Below, piece after piece: positions 28,612 to 39,280 of a DNA stretch of 64,000 nucleotides (the stretch's first letter is position 1; each line of letters begins with the position of its first letter). The stretch is from Talaromyces rugulosus (taxonomy: Eukaryota; Ascomycota; Eurotiomycetes; Eurotiales; Trichocomaceae), in NCBI RefSeq assembly GCF_013368755.1, contig NC_049565.1, forward strand, positions 186,001 through 250,000, given 5' to 3'. A program made the translations under genes and the position numbers. A model generated the notes under the pieces. The model was not told the origin of the DNA. It saw nothing but the letters and a program-made list of their open reading frames with translations, and ran no database searches.

Positions 28612-31600
28612 AATAAGTCGATAAAGTCAACGCAAATGGCTGATTGAATCTACATGGTCTATGATAGGATTGATTCGCATACGAATGGCTGCGACTTTTT
28701 GACATGCAATGATCGCATCGCTACGTACGGCTTCATACGGATGCGGAGAACTATTCCGCTTTCTTGCGCAAAGTATTTTCTTTGGTATCCTCATTCTCTG
28801 GCAAGATCTGGAGGACAAAAAAGTTTTGCCTTTTGAAAGCGATTATCTGTTTGACTCATAGATACGAGCCTTCTACCGAAGATCACAGTCGGTCTTTTCA
28901 TTTTATCGCGGAAAAGCTCACCGAGAATGAGTCGTCATTGGCTCAAAATCGATCCTTCTTCTCCTTATCACTCTCCTTATTATATACACCACATTATTGC
29001 GGAACCACTGGCAGGGAGACACTAACTATCCGAGCGCAATCCGTTTCATGTGTCCACTGTCATGTCATCCATAGGTTAACCATTAAGATGTTGACCAGTT
29101 GACGAAATCTTCGGTCCAAGTGAGCAATTGTTCTTTTCGCTATGAGCAATCGATAGCCTATGAGGATAGCATTTTGAGCAACATGGTTATTGTATACGAA
29201 CCGTCTATTAGGTTGTTTGCGACACCGATCACTATAGCGCTTGCGGTGGCGATCGTCGACTATCGGTCATAAAGGGGGTCTATGGTTGGCCAGCTAACTT
29301 GGAATGATATGTATGCAACATTGCAATCAAAATAACAGACCTAGCATGGCTTAGATCGCTGCCGATCGCCAGAGCTGCCCCTTCTAGACTCTGCGCTCTC
29401 TATTTGTACAGTGAGTGAGTGACTCGTCAGGAGCATTTGGCGCAATCATCGCCGCGAAAATTTTCTTTTTTTTCTGCGATCGACGAAGAAAAAAGAGGGA
29501 CAAACGACAGTAATAATGCTACGATGCCAGCAGCGATCTGCTCTGATCCGACAAATACCCGACTGCGCTGTTACATATAGATGCAACCCATGTCGAGATG
29601 CTTCGCCCAAGAAGCACAATTTCTTCTTCTTATTAATACGAGACCAAAAGCAGAACTAGCGGCTTTAATAAGTATTAACTAGCGACCAAAAAAAAATTAG
29701 AAAAAAGGCGGGGAACATTGAAGTGAGCAGATATTTTCCAGCTAGTATTATTAATATTCCGGCGCAACCTACGGAATATGGAGGTGCGCTAGCAGATGGG
29801 AAAAAAATTTCCCTCGAATGCATCGGTCAGTTTCCAATAATAATCTCAGGGTCTCATCGCGCGGGGAAAATATGAAGCAGACTGATCGAATTGTCGGTAC
29901 GTAGTGGTGAGCAAAAAAAAAGGTTATGTGTGGATGTAGCGATATGTGGCACCCGGGCTTCGGACAGCGCAACGACGCGACCTCGAATGGAAAAAAAAAA
30001 TAGTAACAGCCGTGGATAAGTTGAGGTCATTATTAATAGCTGTCATCATGTCATGATCAACGGATTTTTCGTGACCTGACAGGCTCGGCGAACTAATAAG
30101 TGTGAGCCACACGCTGGTTTCACAGGCAAAGCCTGGCGATGCTTGACAGTGTCGACACCCGCCACATTTATTCGTGATGCCAGACAACGAAGTATCGGTC
30201 TAGACTTGGGACTGGAGACAAGCTGGATTCTTTTTTGCTTGCAGGTGGCCAGAACGCCCTTGGCCGGGCATCAGGCCTATCTAATGATCTAATCCTTCAC
30301 CAGGGCCAGAAACAGCGAGAAACCGGTTCACGTGGGTCGGTGGATAGCAATACAGCGTATCATCCGTTGTGTCTGCTCTGATGGAGTATGAAACCTGCGA
30401 GGATCCAGCCCAATGCACTCTAGGCTCAGGGGAGTGGCGCAAAGATCGACAACTGGCGACTCCACATAACCCACCTCTATCTCTAGGCGCTTAACAGGGT
30501 CAGCGAAGTCGCCCCAGGACCGGCCGGTCGCCCTAGTCTGTGGCTCGCTCGATAGGTGGTGTGTTTCGTTTCAAGTCCGGTACGCAGTTATCGGCTCGGC
30601 CGTGCTGCTAGCGATGTTAATTCATTCCTGCTTTGGGTCACCGTGGTGGCCGCGAGAATTTCTACCACGAGAATTCCCGCCAGAGCCAGCTAGCTGACCA
30701 AAATAGGTGAAAATACATACTGTACGGAGTAGCAAGTCAGCCTAAGCAGTGCACAGTCGTTTTCAGTTTTCAACCTCTGGCAGAGCAATAATACTCGGTG
30801 GTAATACGCGGGAATGCTTCGGCGAGAATCCGACCTTACGTGAGGCCACATTATACGATAGAGTCAGCATCCGGTGGTCTCTCAGGCTCTCAGCAAGCTT
30901 TGGTGGTGACGTGCTGTCACGGAACTGCTGGGTGACATTCATCAGAATTGACATGCGTGCTTGGAGGACCAAATAAGCAAGTCCCGGAAGAAAAAAAAAG
31001 AGGAAAAAGAAAAAACCCCCCGGTCTTCGTATGCAGGTATGCAGGGGCGCGGTTTACATCGCCGCCTCGCCTTACCGTTTCGAGGTCTTGTTCCTGGCGC
31101 CGGGATCGGTATCCAATGGAATCCCCGGTCAAACCGCCGTCTATAGTGATAAGTCCGGGATAAGTTTCTTCTCCCTCCACATAGCATGCATCGATGATCT
31201 TCCATGAGCCGTCCCTGCCCGAAGGGCGAGACGCCCTACGCCAAGTTCCTCCTGGCAAAAAAGAGCGTGGCACGGTGGAGCATGACTGTTGACGATCAAT
31301 GGATCCTGGGGCGGGTCACTCATGGTGATTGACCACGGGTTTGACGTTTCGAATTCGATGAAGTGAGATGGCACCACTTGGCTAGCTTTTGTGGGCTAAA
31401 TGGCCATAGTCAACACATAAGACCCTCCTTCCCATCCTCCTTGCCCTATTTCCTTCCCTAGTGTTTTGCTCAGCTTCCGGCAAGCCTGTATCTACTCGGA
31501 AAAGGACGACATATAGTCGACTCCAAGCATACATTCATTGGTTTATTATTCTCTTGGACAGACAATTCGATTCACCAACAAGCCATCCCAAAACAAAAAA

Positions 31601-31622
31601 AGACCCAAAAAAAGAAGACGAG
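28612..31622. other. 3-kb gene-poor region
   Basis: About 3 kb with only short open frames that lack family features or plausible splicing. It contains several A/T homopolymers and a GC-richer part around 30200-30700. The right end is the promoter of the Kex2-repeat precursor. No transposon or RNA gene recognised. Confidence 0.5.
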
Positions 31623-32384
31623 ATGCATTTTTCCAAGATCGCAGTCGCCATTGCCCCGTTGATCGGGTTCTCTGCCGCCAGACCTGCTCAACCTTCTGGC
31701 AGCGTTCCTCCTTTCCCATCTGGCACGCCTCCTCCTCTGCCATCGATCAGCCTTCCTCTGCCATCGTTCAGCATCCCGCTCCCATCCGGCTCCGGTTTCC
31801 CTTGGCCGTCTGGTTTCCCATGGGACAAGCGCGATGAGGAGCATCACCGCCACGGATCCAGCTCTAGTGTTCCTTTCCCCAGCAGCTCGTTCCCTCACCC
31901 CAGCGTGACCCCGACACCAGCAGCTTTCCCATGGGACAAACGCGCTGAGGAGTACCCCCGTTACGGATCTAGCTCTGGTGTTCCTTCTCCTAGCAGCTCT
32001 GTCCCTCACCCCAGCAGCTCGTTCCCTCACCCCAGCGTGACACCAACACCAGCAGCTTTCCCATGGGACAAGCGCGCTGAGGAGCACCATCACCACCCCT
32101 CTGGTTCTGGTTTCCCCTTCCCCAGTGGTAGTGGTATTCCTTTCCCCAGTGGTAGCCCTTTCCCTAGTGGATTCCCCTTCCCTTCGGGTTTCCCATGGGA
32201 CAAGCGCGCCGATGACCACCACCACCGGCCTCACCCCTCCGGCTCTGGTTTCCCCTTCCCCAGTGGCAGTGGTATTCCTTCCCCCAGCAGCTCGTTCCCT
32301 CACCCTAGCGGAACCCCGCCTCCTAAGCCCACCGGTGGCATCCCTCCCGCCGGATTCAACCTTGGCTTCGGTTTCCCCTTTTAA
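31623..32384 (+). CDS. Secreted Kex2-site repeat precursor, Pro/Ser/His-rich, 253 aa
   Basis: Single exon from ATG 31623; the frame is open further upstream but only this Met gives a signal peptide (MHFSKIAVAIAPLIGFSAA). The body is low-complexity FPFPSG/PSSSFPHPS sequence divided by four FPWDKR units ending at residues 70, 107, 151 and 195, a spacing of 37, 44 and 44. Lys-Arg is the Kex2 cleavage signal. Each following segment starts with an acidic triplet (DEE, AEE, AEE, ADD) and mostly a His run (HHRHG, HHHH, HHHRPHP). This is the layout of Kex2-processed repeat proteins, whose products include pheromones, repellent peptides and dikaritin RiPP cores. No DUF3328 oxidase is nearby, so modification is not predicted. 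Function unknown. Confidence 0.8.
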   Translation: MHFSKIAVAIAPLIGFSAARPAQPSGSVPPFPSGTPPPLPSISLPLPSFSIPLPSGSGFPWPSGFPWDKRDEEHHRHGSSSSVPFPSSSFPHPSVTPTPAAFPWDKRAEEYPRYGSSSGVPSPSSSVPHPSSSFPHPSVTPTPAAFPWDKRAEEHHHHPSGSGFPFPSGSGIPFPSGSPFPSGFPFPSGFPWDKRADDHHHRPHPSGSGFPFPSGSGIPSPSSSFPHPSGTPPPKPTGGIPPAGFNLGFGFPF

Positions 32385-33669
32385 AGTGATGCGTCGACGG
32401 AATAACGATGGGATATACGGGAAATGGATCTAGCTAGGTAAATGAGCCGGCTCTTATTGGTTTACACAGGCAGTAAAGTTAACGAATCTGTGTTATTAGC
32501 AGCGCAGTTCATGTCTCGCCCTACCGGACCGGCCCTCGTTTATGGGCTTTCTTCTTCTGCCGGTTGGCTTTTGTTGGGAGATATATACACATATTTTTGT
32601 TCCCTTTTTTATCCTTCGTTCAAACCTATAATTTTCAGTTTTAAGGCTTGAAAAACTATACCGCTCGCTACCCATATATTAGACCAATGCCGTTCCATCT
32701 TGCTTGTGTAAACCGAACGGGGTGTTCGGACAGATAGAGAACTCCCCGACTAGTTTGTACAACATGGAAAGACATATTATCACTTAATTCCTGAAACTAA
32801 GCTTTCGTATTGCTTCTAGACTAGTTCTCTGTACTAGACTAATGTTTCTCGGTCCTTTTTGTAGTTAGGCGGAATAGGTTGTCGACTGCTGTTAGTGTTT
32901 CGTTACCCCATTTGCCTATTTGAGCAAGAACTTTGCGATTACCGGATTTGGTAAATGTATTTTTAGTTACGTAAATTTTGTATTCATGGAAGCGTTCGAG
33001 CCGCGAGCAAGAAATTACATGACTGTATGTTGTAAAACCCAGCTCAGGTACTAACTACTAATCTGGACGTTTGAATATCAATACTCGTTTTTCACCCTTA
33101 CAAAGTCCAATATACCGTTTCAACGAAGAAGATATTTAATCGACAAGAAATTTAATCGTCACTTAATCTGTGGCGAGTAATAAACAAATTGGCTGTATGA
33201 GAGGTTTTATTACGAGAAGAGAGATGTGTCAAAAGCCTCGCATATTAAGATGGAACTGCAGCTAGCCAAATTACTGAATTGAGAACCTTAATATAGCCAC
33301 CACAGTCCTTCTTAAAGAACTAGAGGTATTTGCTTCTTCATGGACTCATCGAGCTACGATGGTTGGGTTATTTGCTGAGACTCCTCTGCCCTGGCCTCAG
33401 GATCGTCACACCAAGCCTATCCTCACCCCCACAGAAGGAATCGTACGGGAATTTTGATGTAAATCTTTGAAATTGACATGGATATGGTAATCCTATTATT
33501 TGAATTCCTATTTATCAAAATATTGCTGTGATTCATGATCTTCCAATACTGAAATTCGACAGCGAAATCTCAAATTACGTAAGTAGGCTTATGTAATATT
33601 AGCGATGTCAAGGACTTTTTCACATTACTCGGGATTATCCCTCTTCAATGCACACAACAAATAATAACA
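32385..33669. other. Intergenic, 1.3 kb
   Basis: AT-rich spacer between the repeat precursor and the chitinase on the same strand. Short open frames only; no gene supported. Confidence 0.5.
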
Positions 33670-35073
33670 ATGTGTCTTCCAAGGATTATACTATGTCTCA
33701 TAACACTCCTTCGGCTTGCGTCTTCCAAAAGATGTGTCATGTACCTTACGGGGTGAGTGCCTTGTACTCTTCGCCGGTTTTTTTTTTTTTTTTTTTTTTT
33801 GCCACAGCTGATCCACGGTCCAGACAACATGACGTAGTTCCGGACTTATCTCTCGTTTCAGATGTGACCCACGTCGCTCTAGCTTTTATGTCTTCATCCA
33901 TATTCAATACCCCAGATGCATCCACATGGCCGCTATTCACTAGCGTTGAGCGTGTCCGTGAAAAGTTTCCCGTAGACACAGCCGTCATGGTTGCCATTGG
34001 CGGCTGGGGTAACACGGATGGGTTTTCTGCAGCTGCTGCAAGTGACGAGAGTAGAAAGCTGTTTGCTTCTAATATCCAGAGAATGGTCAACCAGACCGGG
34101 GCAGATGGTGATCGGCGGTGGTCCCATTTGAGGTTCTGGACTTGTGTGCTAACTCTCAATTAGGTGTCGACATTGATTGGGAGTACCCTGGGTAGACTCG
34201 CCGTTTCTCATATTTTAATGAATATCTTGGCTCAATCTGACTTATTTAATTCATAGTGGAAACGGAGAAGACTACAAGCAAATTTCGAACTCCAAAAAGA
34301 AGTGGGAAATTGATGCATATCCCAAGTTGGTCGCAGAAATTCGGACAGCGCTCGGCCCAGACAAGTTGATATCAGCCGCCGTACCTGGACTGCGACGAGA
34401 CATGATAGCTTTTACCAATGAGAACATCGCAGCTCTCAGTGACTCGTTAAACTTTTTCAATATTATGACTTATGATCTGATGAACAGGCGGGACAACATT
34501 ACGAAGCATCACACAGGTATACAACTATCCTTGGATGCAATTGATGCGTACCTCGAAAATGGTCTCGCTCCTGAAATGGCCAATCTTGGGCTTGCCTTTT
34601 ATGTCAAGTGGTTTAAAACTAGCCCCGATGGAGGCTGTTCAAAGAATCCTATTGGATGCAAAACTATACTGATGGAAGACCCGACAACTGGTGCTGACCT
34701 CGGACAAGCAGGTGCCTTTTCCTGGCATGACTCGGTTCCATTGGAACTAAAAGATTCGTTCGACCGAGCTTTAGGAAACGGTCGATATGATCCAAGGGGT
34801 GGTGGCCATTACTTTTGGGACAAGACGGAGAACATTTTTTGGACGTGGGATACTCCGGATGCGATCGCAGAAAAGGTTCCATCTCTTGTAGGTCGGAAAC
34901 AACTCGGTGGTGTTTTTGCTTGGGGGTTGGGCGAGGATGCTCCGGACTTCAAAAACTTGCAGGCTTTGACGACAGGTTATCAAAGCATCTACGAGGAACC
35001 TGGCCAAGGAGCTACCGTTCATCCGCCTGAAAAACCGTCAACACCGGGTGGCCAGTCGAGAGACGAGCTATAA
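33670..35073 (+). CDS. GH18 chitinase with N-terminal signal and C-terminal RDEL, 403 aa
   Basis: Exons 33670-33752, 33824-34107, 34164-34191 and 34257-35073. The first exon encodes a hydrophobic leader (MCLPRIILCLITLLRLASS) and the start of the barrel, MYLTG; splicing at 33823 continues with QHDVVPDLSLVSDVTHVALAF. The second and third introns flank a 28-nt exon that restores the catalytic motif DGVDIDWE (D122-E129, E129 the proton donor). Later GH18 strands are visible as ISAAVPG, FFNIMTYDL, GLAFYVKWF and GGVFAWGLGED. The protein ends SRDEL, resembling an ER-retrieval signal (HDEL/KDEL), unusual for a chitinase. The first intron contains a 23-nt T-run before its acceptor. Confidence 0.87.
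33778..33800 (+). repeat. T23 homopolymer in chitinase intron 1
   Basis: Uninterrupted T-run upstream of the 3' splice site of the first chitinase intron. There are two nearby AG acceptors (33807 and 33823); only the second keeps the GH18 frame. Confidence 0.8.
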
Positions 35074-36923: not shown

Positions 36924-39280
36924 CTATTCAATGGGCGTGGGCGGGTAGGCGGATCTTTTTCCGGGGTCAATATTATTAGACACAAAAGACAGCAAGGAAC
37001 ATACCCATATGTCAGCGACGCAATAGTGATCTGCCCAGTCAAATCAAGATAATTATCGCTATTTCCAGCTGCATTTCCTTCTAACGGAATCGACTGTTTT
37101 CTGCAAATATGCTGCATTTGTTCTGGGATGCTTGACTGGGTGTCTTGCAACCTCAATGGATCCTCAACGATTGTGAGCATCAACCCCTGCCCCCATTTGT
37201 ATTAGAATTCACCAACTAGAAGTATGGGGAACACTGACAGCGTCCATGTGCCATTCCATATGGCAATGCAAAAGCCATATACCTGGGTTATCCGCTCGGA
37301 AGCGGACTATATAGAAGGAAAGTGGATTTATAAACCATGTGTCTCGGCGCATGGGAGTACTGTTAAAAATGACTTGATCTTCGCTTTTATTAAATTGATT
37401 GCCGAAGCTGTCCCATTCTGAAATGGCGTTGCCGAAATTGCCAATTGCAGGGCCATCCGTCTTCACATTGGAGTGAGTGTAGACACCAGCACCGCGGGCC
37501 GCAAGCTGTACGTTATGCCCATGTACATGGATTGGATGCGGAGTTTCATCTATTGAAATTTTTATTATTACATAAAGTTGGAAGGAAATAAGACAAGACA
37601 AAAAACTGGATGGTACCTAGGTTGTTGATCACGAGTTCGACGATATTACTACCACCCAGGACGAGAGAATTCGTATATTTGCCATAAACGCTATTTGTTT
37701 TCAGTTGGAAGAATCTTTTTAATAGAGTAGGAATTCGAGCCGGTGACGTACTCTGCGTTCACAGCATCATAGTCTGCTGATAGGGCTGTATAAAGTGTCG
37801 GTACCTGTTGTGGAATGTAGGTAATGTTATTGAAGCCAGAACTTAGAAATAAGCAAACTGCACAAGTAATTACTACGTCCATTAGAAAACGATACATACC
37901 GGTACTGTTCATTTCCAGGGGTGGTTTGCTGGAAGAACGATAGATTTAACACAAACTGTTGATCTACACCGCCTTGCCCGAGCAATGGAGCCTCGTCATA
38001 CGGAGTAAGATCGTTATCATCCCAGATTTCGAATGTATAGACGTATGGAGCAGTTTTTATAATCGGGTTGGATGCTATAGAACACTTGTGTCACCAAAAG
38101 TTTCTGGGTCATATCCGGAATATTTGACAAACCATTGTAAACAATAGGAATAGAGGCATTTGGTTGAAACCCCGTATTGGGGATTGCTCTTGAATCCAGA
38201 TCAACCACATTCATCGCAGCTAGCATAGCATAGTTCTTAGCACTAGTGGGTTGCGTTTTTAACAAGACCCCATATCGCTGAGCGCTGCCGAAGAACAAAT
38301 TGTCAACTGTGAACGGCTTCGTGTATACCCCATCAGCCTCGATGACGGTGAAATTATGGTCTTCTAGATACAATAAGAACGATGATAGGGCAGACATGTT
38401 GATCACGCGCAAAAAGTATGTTCGGTTTGACTGAACAAAAAATTCGGTCGAGGGGCTGTCGTTGATTAGGGCTCTGATGGGCACGGGTGAGGCGCCTCCC
38501 CAGGGGTTTTTTGCGACAGCTATTTTCATTAGCTCATCAACTGAAAAGACATCGAAGCAAAACAGAAAACGAGAAATATTACAAAGGTATTCGACATGTA
38601 AGTCTGCGGCCTGCTCTGTATTTTTCGTAAGCGTAATTTCCCCTAGGTAAGAACCACACTCTAAAATACCATGATACCAATCCGTGATAGTCATCACTAT
38701 TTCTTCATCGTAGTCATATGGATTATTAGGGTCATGAATGATCAGCGGGCCCCTCAGACCATCAACGTACTGGCTGGGTGAATGACCTGCAATATATTCC
38801 TAAGCTCAATCGCAAAGCACTATAACCTGAGGGATTTGTTTACTGTGATACCAATAAGTTCCGGGCTGATCCACCTTAAACTTGTAAGTATACGAAGCGC
38901 CTGGAATAATTGGGCATTGAGATGCCATTGGCGCCCCATCGTTAGCATTGTTATCTCTCTGAAAAATGCCATGCCAATGAAGTGTCATTGACTGGTTGCC
39001 AAGGCTGTTGTGTACGTTGACAATAACGGTGTCATTGATATTTGCTCGTAGGGTTGGACTTGGCCATTCGTTATTGATGGCGATAACTGGTCTGAAAATT
39101 GTCTTAATTTCGGTATTCTTAAATCCCAAGGGAAAACACTCACCGTGTAAATTCGCCGTCGGGATTGACTGTGATCCAACCAATATCCCAGTTGTAAGTA
39201 ACGACAGCAGCGTAACTGAAAGGAAAAGATGAAAGGTAAAGAGCAATAATGATTTTCAGGATAAATTGAGAGAGAAACAT
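36924..39280 (-). CDS. Multicopper oxidase (laccase/ferroxidase-like), secreted, 590 aa
   Basis: Ten exons on the minus strand: 39280-39144, 39091-38844, 38786-38670, 38540-38133, 38074-37900, 37841-37752, 37690-37617, 37549-37239, 37186-37005 and 36954-36924. Signal peptide MFLSQFILKIIIALYLSS. All four copper motifs appear once spliced: HWHG, WYHSHSPSQYVDGLRGP, HPIHVHGH and LLHCHMEWHM. The first and third cannot be joined in any single open frame. N-terminal NPDGEFTRPVIAINNEWPSP is typical of ascomycete multicopper oxidases. The last small intron (37004-36955) is inferred from GTATGT and the natural end TYGSAYPPTPIE; without it the protein would read on to 36896 through a hydrophobic stretch. 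Oxidation of phenols, pigment precursors or Fe(II) outside the cell is expected. Confidence 0.87.

What the first reader, a model, noticed from the sequence alone, without database searches (positions are those of the whole stretch)
31623..32384. Kex2-processed repeat precursor with acidic and His-rich product starts
Seen: signal peptide, four FPWDKR units 37-44 residues apart, and each following segment opening with DEE/AEE/ADD, mostly then a His run. Established: Lys-Arg sites are cut by Kex2; repeat precursors of this form yield fungal pheromones, repellents and dikaritin RiPP cores; yeast alpha-factor also has an acidic spacer after KR. Inference: four related Pro/Ser peptides, three of them with His clusters, are secreted. 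This may be an undescribed peptide family, possibly metal-binding, and it lies near a multicopper oxidase.
Basis: partly seen in the sequence, partly recalled or inferred. Interest (0 to 1): 0.75.

Follow-up and report, generated by a model that had tools for sequence, protein, structure and literature searches.

The report
Kex2-cut precursor of four peptides
A mould gene, most likely from a Talaromyces species, encodes a secreted precursor that looks built to be cut at four places into a small set of proline-, serine- and histidine-rich peptides; it belongs to a known broad class of fungal peptide precursors, and what these peptides do is unknown.

Summary
Window 31623-32384 (+) is an uninterrupted 253-aa ORF with a signal-peptide-like start and four FPWDKR units (KR at residues 69, 106, 150, 194), each followed by DEE, AEE, AEE or ADD, three of the four then by a His cluster. 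By architecture it is a Kex2-processed repeat protein (KEP), a known broad class; no Pfam model matches. All 13 acidic residues lie in the D-KR-xxx cassette, which fits the published preference of cleaved Kex2 sites for acidic or small P1', P2' and P4' residues (PMC2515848), so the acidic start is best read as a cleavage signature. One paralogue was found, with a single WEKR-DDD site. Five relatives were found (two named Talaromyces, three unnamed): one shows FEKR-EED...HHHH directly, and wrong-frame stretches in all five are compatible with KR-HH units. No UstYa or tyrosinase match lies in the window, so a dikaritin reading is unsupported. The copper-oxidase neighbour is not repeated at the paralogue. 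Best reading: four linear, probably disordered secreted peptides, three with a histidine head that could respond to pH or metal. Processing is supported by sequence only; function is inferred. New member of a known kind.

The parts
31623..32384 (+). Precursor gene, 253 aa, one uninterrupted frame, stop TAA
   Evidence: codon-position differences between units
31623..31679 (+). Signal peptide, about residues 1-19 (cut site judged by eye)
   Evidence: hydropathy peak residues 6-16; N-terminus shared with paralogue and relatives
31680..31832 (+). Pro/Ser-rich propeptide ending in the first FPWDKR
31815..31832 (+). Kex2 site 1, FPWDKR (then DEE)
31833..31943 (+). Product 1, 37 aa with KR (35 without): DEEHHRHG...FPWD
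31926..31943 (+). Kex2 site 2, FPWDKR (then AEE)
31944..32075 (+). Product 2, 44 aa with KR: AEEYPRYG...FPWD; lacks the His cluster
32058..32075 (+). Kex2 site 3, FPWDKR (then AEE)
32076..32207 (+). Product 3, 44 aa with KR: AEEHHHHP...FPWD
32190..32207 (+). Kex2 site 4, FPWDKR (then ADD)
32208..32381 (+). Product 4, C-terminal 58 aa: ADDHHHRPHP...GFGFPF, no KR at its end

Best explanation
The gene encodes a secreted Kex2-processed repeat protein. After signal-peptide removal, the Golgi kexin cuts after the four Lys-Arg pairs, helped by a repeated cassette with Asp before KR and two or three acidic residues just after it. This frees an N-terminal propeptide and four related Pro/Ser/Gly-rich peptides of about 35, 42, 42 and 58 residues (after carboxypeptidase trimming of KR). 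They are linear rather than cyclised and probably disordered. Three of the four start with an acidic plus His head. My best guess is that they act outside the cell, at the hyphal surface or in the medium, with the His head changing charge at acid pH or taking up metal ions. Shown: the ORF, the cassette, the repeat structure, a paralogue and relatives. Inferred: the cleavage itself, trimming, linearity, disorder, location and every statement about function.
For: Sites and cassette. All 13 acidic residues are in the cassette, matching the published bias of cleaved Kex2 sites toward acidic or small P1', P2' and P4' (PMC2515848; passages and sections 7 and 10). With that paper's matrix the WDKR sites score 2.09, above the recalled yeast LDKR at 1.86. 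KR plus acid is kept in the paralogue (WPWEKR-DDD) and in P0002 (PFEKR-EEDFQLHHHH), where neighbouring residues differ. Unit 2 and the paralogue keep the acids but not a His cluster next to them, as expected if the acids serve the protease. Wrong-frame parts of 5 of 5 Talaromyces-type relatives are compatible with KR-[A/D/E]-[D/E/G]...HHRPH units (shuffle mean at most 0.001). Part of a kexin P domain is in the genome. No UstYa or tyrosinase match in the window. His protonation would shift net charge from -3 to +1, -3 to +1 and 0 to +5 in products 1, 3 and 4.
Against: No transcript, peptide or mutant data. The paralogue has only one KR, so it is at most a single-cut proprotein. The frame-shifted relatives are only compatible with the units, with stops possible at 29 to 46 positions each; P0009 appears to lack KR where P0005 and P0010 have their first unit. 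In one unit of P0002 and P0009 the second residue after KR must be Gly while HHH fits, so there the acids are less complete than the His run, against the view that the acids are always the better kept part. Trp at P4 and Asp at P3 are not Kex2's best residues in the published matrix. Nothing tests metal or pH binding.
Confidence: 0.55

Rival explanations
1. Repellent-like surface coat: the Kex2 products assemble on hyphae or spores as a structural or surface-active layer, as U. maydis Rep1 peptides do; the His head is incidental.
For: Product lengths 37-58 aa are close to Rep1's 35-53 aa, and Rep1 is also cut at Kex2 sites (PMC4617103 passages). Products are rich in Phe/Pro/Gly repeats.
Against: Mean hydropathy is -0.56 to -0.89 for the four products and Pro is 19-26%, which does not look like an amphipathic fibril former; no sequence comparison with Rep1 was made.
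Confidence: 0.25
2. One cell-wall or secreted Pro/Ser-rich protein in which a KR cut only removes a propeptide; low-complexity expansion copied the site without consequence.
For: The paralogue and P0002 begin as signal peptide, propeptide, KR, mature part, with one KR read directly in each. The four units clearly arose by duplication.
Against: 4 of 4 copies keep both KR and the acidic flank; the KR codons differ by one synonymous change only.
Confidence: 0.2
3. Antagonism or signalling peptides: the released Pro/His-rich peptides act on competing microbes or other hyphae.
For: In P0002 the stretch after KR holds HHHHRPHPSGRPRPSGRPHPSG, Arg/His/Pro-rich. Unit number and sequence differ among relatives.
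Against: Three of the window's four products are net acidic with neutral His and the fourth is neutral. Resemblance to Pro-rich antimicrobial peptides is recalled only.
Confidence: 0.15
4. Dikaritin-type RiPP: the cores are cyclised by UstYa oxidases.
For: Kex2 repeat architecture. KEP types G-3 and G-8 with di-His motifs are mostly beside DUF3328 genes (PMC7329392 sections 6 and 7).
Against: 43 UstYa matches listed in the genome, none in the window; nearest on the contig about 1.49 Mb away. None of 14 tyrosinase matches is in the window. Products are long, and only product 2 holds Tyr.
Confidence: 0.04

Closest known systems
Kex2-processed repeat proteins (KEPs; PMC6339444, PMC7329392, PMC9769878)
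   Same: Signal-peptide-like start, at least four fragments on KR cleavage, related segments between sites
   Different: Products of 37-58 aa, Pro/Ser/Gly low complexity with an acidic-His head; not matched to any published type here (supplementary tables and figures could not be opened)
Yeast alpha-factor precursor (recalled)
   Same: Repeated D-K-R followed by an acidic stretch
   Different: No X-Ala/X-Pro spacer after KR here; products long
U. maydis Rep1 repellent (PMC4617103, passages)
   Same: Kex2 processing to peptides of 35-53 aa
   Different: Rep1 has 12 amphipathic repeats; these products are Pro-rich and hydrophilic on average
Dikaritins (ustiloxin, phomopsin, asperipin)
   Same: Repeat precursor with Kex2 sites
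   Different: No UstYa or tyrosinase match in the window; long segments, Tyr in one of four
Umemura KEP types G-3 and G-8 with di-His motif (PMC7329392)
   Same: HH together with Pro in a KEP; G-3 includes Talaromyces
   Different: 57 of 64 G-3 and 45 of 49 G-8 KEPs have DUF3328 genes within 15 genes; no such match in this 64-kb window. The profile figure could not be seen, so identity with G-3 is open

Membership tests
Kex2-processed repeat proteins (KEPs) | Signal peptide for ER entry | tested here: inconclusive
   Hydrophobic peak at residues 6-16; no predictor was available
Kex2-processed repeat proteins (KEPs) | At least four fragments when cut at KR or RR (PMC6339444 section 24) | tested here: met
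   Five fragments after the signal region
Kex2-processed repeat proteins (KEPs) | At least three similar repeats between Kex2 sites | tested here: inconclusive
   Of ten fragment pairs, three have 70% or more identical aligned residues (32/37, 32/41, 28/40); the fragment at residues 152-195 has two such partners. The published programs were not run
Kex2-processed repeat proteins (KEPs) | Actual cleavage by kexin | not testable with these tools
   Needs peptidomics or in vitro digestion
Dikaritin RiPPs | UstYa/DUF3328 gene beside the precursor | tested here: not met
   43 matches listed, none in the 64-kb window
Dikaritin RiPPs | Tyrosinase gene in the cluster (ustiloxin, phomopsin) | tested here: not met
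   14 matches listed, none in the window
Alpha-pheromone precursors | STE13 signature X-A or X-P right after KR | tested here: not met
   After KR: DE, AE, AE, AD
Repellents (Rep1) | Amphipathic repeats forming surface-active fibrils | not testable with these tools
   Only length and mean hydropathy compared
Any Pfam family | Match to a Pfam-A model | tested here: not met
   0 families at E up to 1

The most novel reading that the evidence does not exclude
A Talaromyces-centred family of Kex2-released peptides whose acidic-histidine heads make them pH-gated metal binders outside the cell, a KEP class acting on metals rather than as pheromone, toxin or coat; it would have been easy to miss because the two named database entries found for it appear to be read in the wrong frame over the repeats.
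Probability: 0.13. Interest if true: 0.7.

Novelty: new member of a known kind. Interest (0 to 1): 0.4.

Why it matters
KEPs are widespread and their functions are largely unknown (PMC9769878 abstract). This gene gives a clean case in which a protease cassette, holding all the acidic residues, can be told apart from the likely product, and in which the number of cut sites differs among relatives (one in the paralogue, four here). It also suggests that KEP surveys built on annotated proteomes can miss families whose low-complexity repeats are annotated in the wrong frame, as seems to be the case for the T. amestolkiae and T. pinophilus entries found here.

Tried and rejected
Pfam on the protein: nothing. 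Three capped protein searches scored only 7,991, 7,986 and 7,982 candidates, those sharing most words. They returned ten different proteins. I set aside four: P0006 (Pycnora, PTGTG low complexity, E 3e-5), P0007 (cutinase domain with a Pro-rich N-terminus, E 0.01), P0008 (E 0.93) and P0011 (E 7.5). P0003 (E 8.9e-3 as a single-query hit) is kept as doubtful; its E of 1e-57 is not independent because it was in the query alignment. The same holds for P0002 and for P0004 and P0005. P0009 and P0010 were found with an alignment that held the wrong-frame tail of P0002, and match it there.

Dikaritin cluster: rejected. Fet3-Ftr1 iron-uptake pair beside the precursor: rejected, since the one FTR1 match (C6:1560384) lies next to an oxidase match on contig 6 (C6:1558200). 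Oxidase or chitinase as constant companions of the family: not supported; of 20 Cu-oxidase_2 and 32 GH18 matches listed, none lies in the 20 kb around the paralogue (nearest on that contig C5:4190937 and C5:5006476). ORFs of 130 codons or more in those 20 kb were read by eye. Other PW[D/E]KR sites in the genome: of 19 places, four are this gene and one is the paralogue; the other fourteen were read (ten, four) and, by eye, none sits in a repeat precursor.

Structure prediction was not run, because a Pro/Ser-rich low-complexity chain would give no usable model. The bacterial promoter scan is not informative for a fungus.

Talaromyces is inferred from relatives; T. rugulosus W13939 is a guess from recalled chromosome number and size, which the paper passages I read did not give.

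Full report
What is there. The ORF at 31623-32384 (+) encodes 253 aa in one uninterrupted frame. The N-terminus looks like a signal peptide (hydropathy peak at residues 6-16; no predictor was available). It contains exactly four dibasic sites, all Lys-Arg, all in FPWDKR, at residues 69, 106, 150 and 194. The residues after them are DEEHHRHG, AEEYPRYG, AEEHHHHP and ADDHHHRP. Composition is 23% Pro, 19% Ser, 10% Gly and 10% Phe.

More than chance. Shuffling the 233 residues after residue 20 gave four KR in 0 of 20,000 shuffles, but the units are duplicates, so that test overstates the odds. Differences among units 1-4 are most frequent at third codon positions in 6 of 6 pairs, on alignments made at the protein level. 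All 13 acidic residues of the protein are in D-KR-xxx. In the 35.76-Mb genome, DNA for KR-[A/D/E]-[D/E]-[D/E]-H-H occurs three times, all in this gene; the backward control pattern occurs once.

What the acidic residues do. In a study of Kex2 substrates from four yeasts, cleaved sites were enriched in acidic and small residues at P1', P2' and more moderately P4', uncleaved sites showed no such bias, and the authors relate this to positively charged pockets in Kex2 (PMC2515848; passages and sections 7 and 10 read). KR-AEE, KR-DEE and KR-ADD fit that. Unit 2 and the paralogue keep the acids but have no His cluster beside them. I therefore assign the acids to cleavage and the His cluster, if anything, to product function. 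This is inference from sequence, and one point is against it: in one unit of P0002 and of P0009, the second residue after KR must be Gly in the compatible frame while HHH still fits.

Family. In the same genome one paralogue was found at C5:5141936-5142202 (-), a 153-aa ORF with the same kind of N-terminus and one site, WPWEKR-DDD. Outside, P0002 shares the N-terminus and has GPFEKR-EEDFQLHHHHRPHPSGRP read directly. P0004 (named T. amestolkiae) and P0005 (T. pinophilus) share the N-terminus and were found with E 1.1e-5 and 2.4e-5 before being used in any query. From a point in the Pro-rich region, P0002, P0004 and P0005, and P0009 and P0010 throughout, read LTHLADL-type sequence, which fits the PHPSGRP repeat read in another frame. 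In that other frame, 5 of 5 are compatible with at least one KR-[A/D/E]-[D/E/G]...HHRPH unit: nine places listed, of which two in P0010 are overlapping alternatives. The third frame gives 0 in 5 of 5, and residue shuffles average 0 to 0.001. No stop is forced, but a stop is possible at 29 to 46 positions in each. P0009 appears unable to hold KR where P0005 and P0010 have their first unit (compared by eye). P0003 (E 8.9e-3) has GFAKR-AEHEKEKHHFHG but also a second site, FEKR-AAA; its relation is doubtful.

Surroundings. A GH18 chitinase-like gene lies at about 33648-35073 (+) and a multicopper oxidase at about 37209-38697 (-); the oxidase's best solved relative is Fet3 (E 4.5e-19). None of 20 Cu-oxidase_2 matches and none of 32 GH18 matches in the genome lies in the 20 kb around the paralogue. 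The genome's one FTR1 match is beside another oxidase on contig 6. No UstYa match (0 of 43) or tyrosinase match (0 of 14) lies in the window; the tool calls such counts lower bounds. Part of a kexin P domain is present on contig 2 (57 of 86 positions).

Mechanism. Signal-peptide entry, Golgi kexin cutting at four sites, probable carboxypeptidase trimming, release of four linear peptides. Length and Kex2 processing resemble Rep1 (PMC4617103 passages), but the products are hydrophilic on average. The His heads would move net charge from -3 to +1 (products 1 and 3) and from 0 to +5 (product 4) on protonation, which is why I favour a pH- or metal-responsive extracellular role, at low confidence.

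Known kinds. It fits the KEP class by its architecture (PMC6339444: abstract, second part of results, pipeline section, passages; PMC7329392: abstract, sections 6, 7 and 13, passages; PMC9769878: abstract, passages, section 14). One survey counts 7,878 KEPs, 5,318 of them in 838 types and 2,560 stand-alone (PMC7329392), so a new family is expected rather than surprising. I could not open supplementary tables or figures, so prior listing of this gene family is not excluded. Searches of the paper library for Talaromyces with Kex2 precursors, for KEX2-processed with Talaromyces or histidine, and for histidine-rich Kex2 metal peptides returned no paper whose listing describes such a family (titles and starts of abstracts only, apart from the KEP papers named above).

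Verdict. Observation confirmed; interpretation partly supported; a new member of a known kind, interest 0.4.

Noticed in passing
P0004 (T. amestolkiae) and P0005 (T. pinophilus): Both annotated proteins appear to leave the expected reading frame in the repeat region (LTHLADL where another frame fits PHPSGRP), so annotated proteomes would hide the KR sites.
   Followed up: partly
Own genome, C5:3945341-3955430: Four UstYa matches and three tyrosinase matches within about 10 kb: a likely dikaritin-type cluster elsewhere on the same contig.
   Followed up: no
Own genome, C1:6627364-6634133: Six UstYa matches (some may be exons of one gene) within 7 kb, another candidate RiPP cluster.
   Followed up: no
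window 37209-38697 (-): Multicopper oxidase with Fet3 as best solved relative, but the genome's one FTR1 match sits beside a different oxidase at C6:1558200.
   Followed up: partly
P0007: A cutinase-domain protein with a Pro-rich N-terminal stretch holding LKR-AEKEE, the same kind of acid-flanked KR site in front of an enzyme.
   Followed up: no
window 31572-32303 (-): A 243-aa open frame antisense to the gene, best read as a by-product of the repeats.
   Followed up: partly
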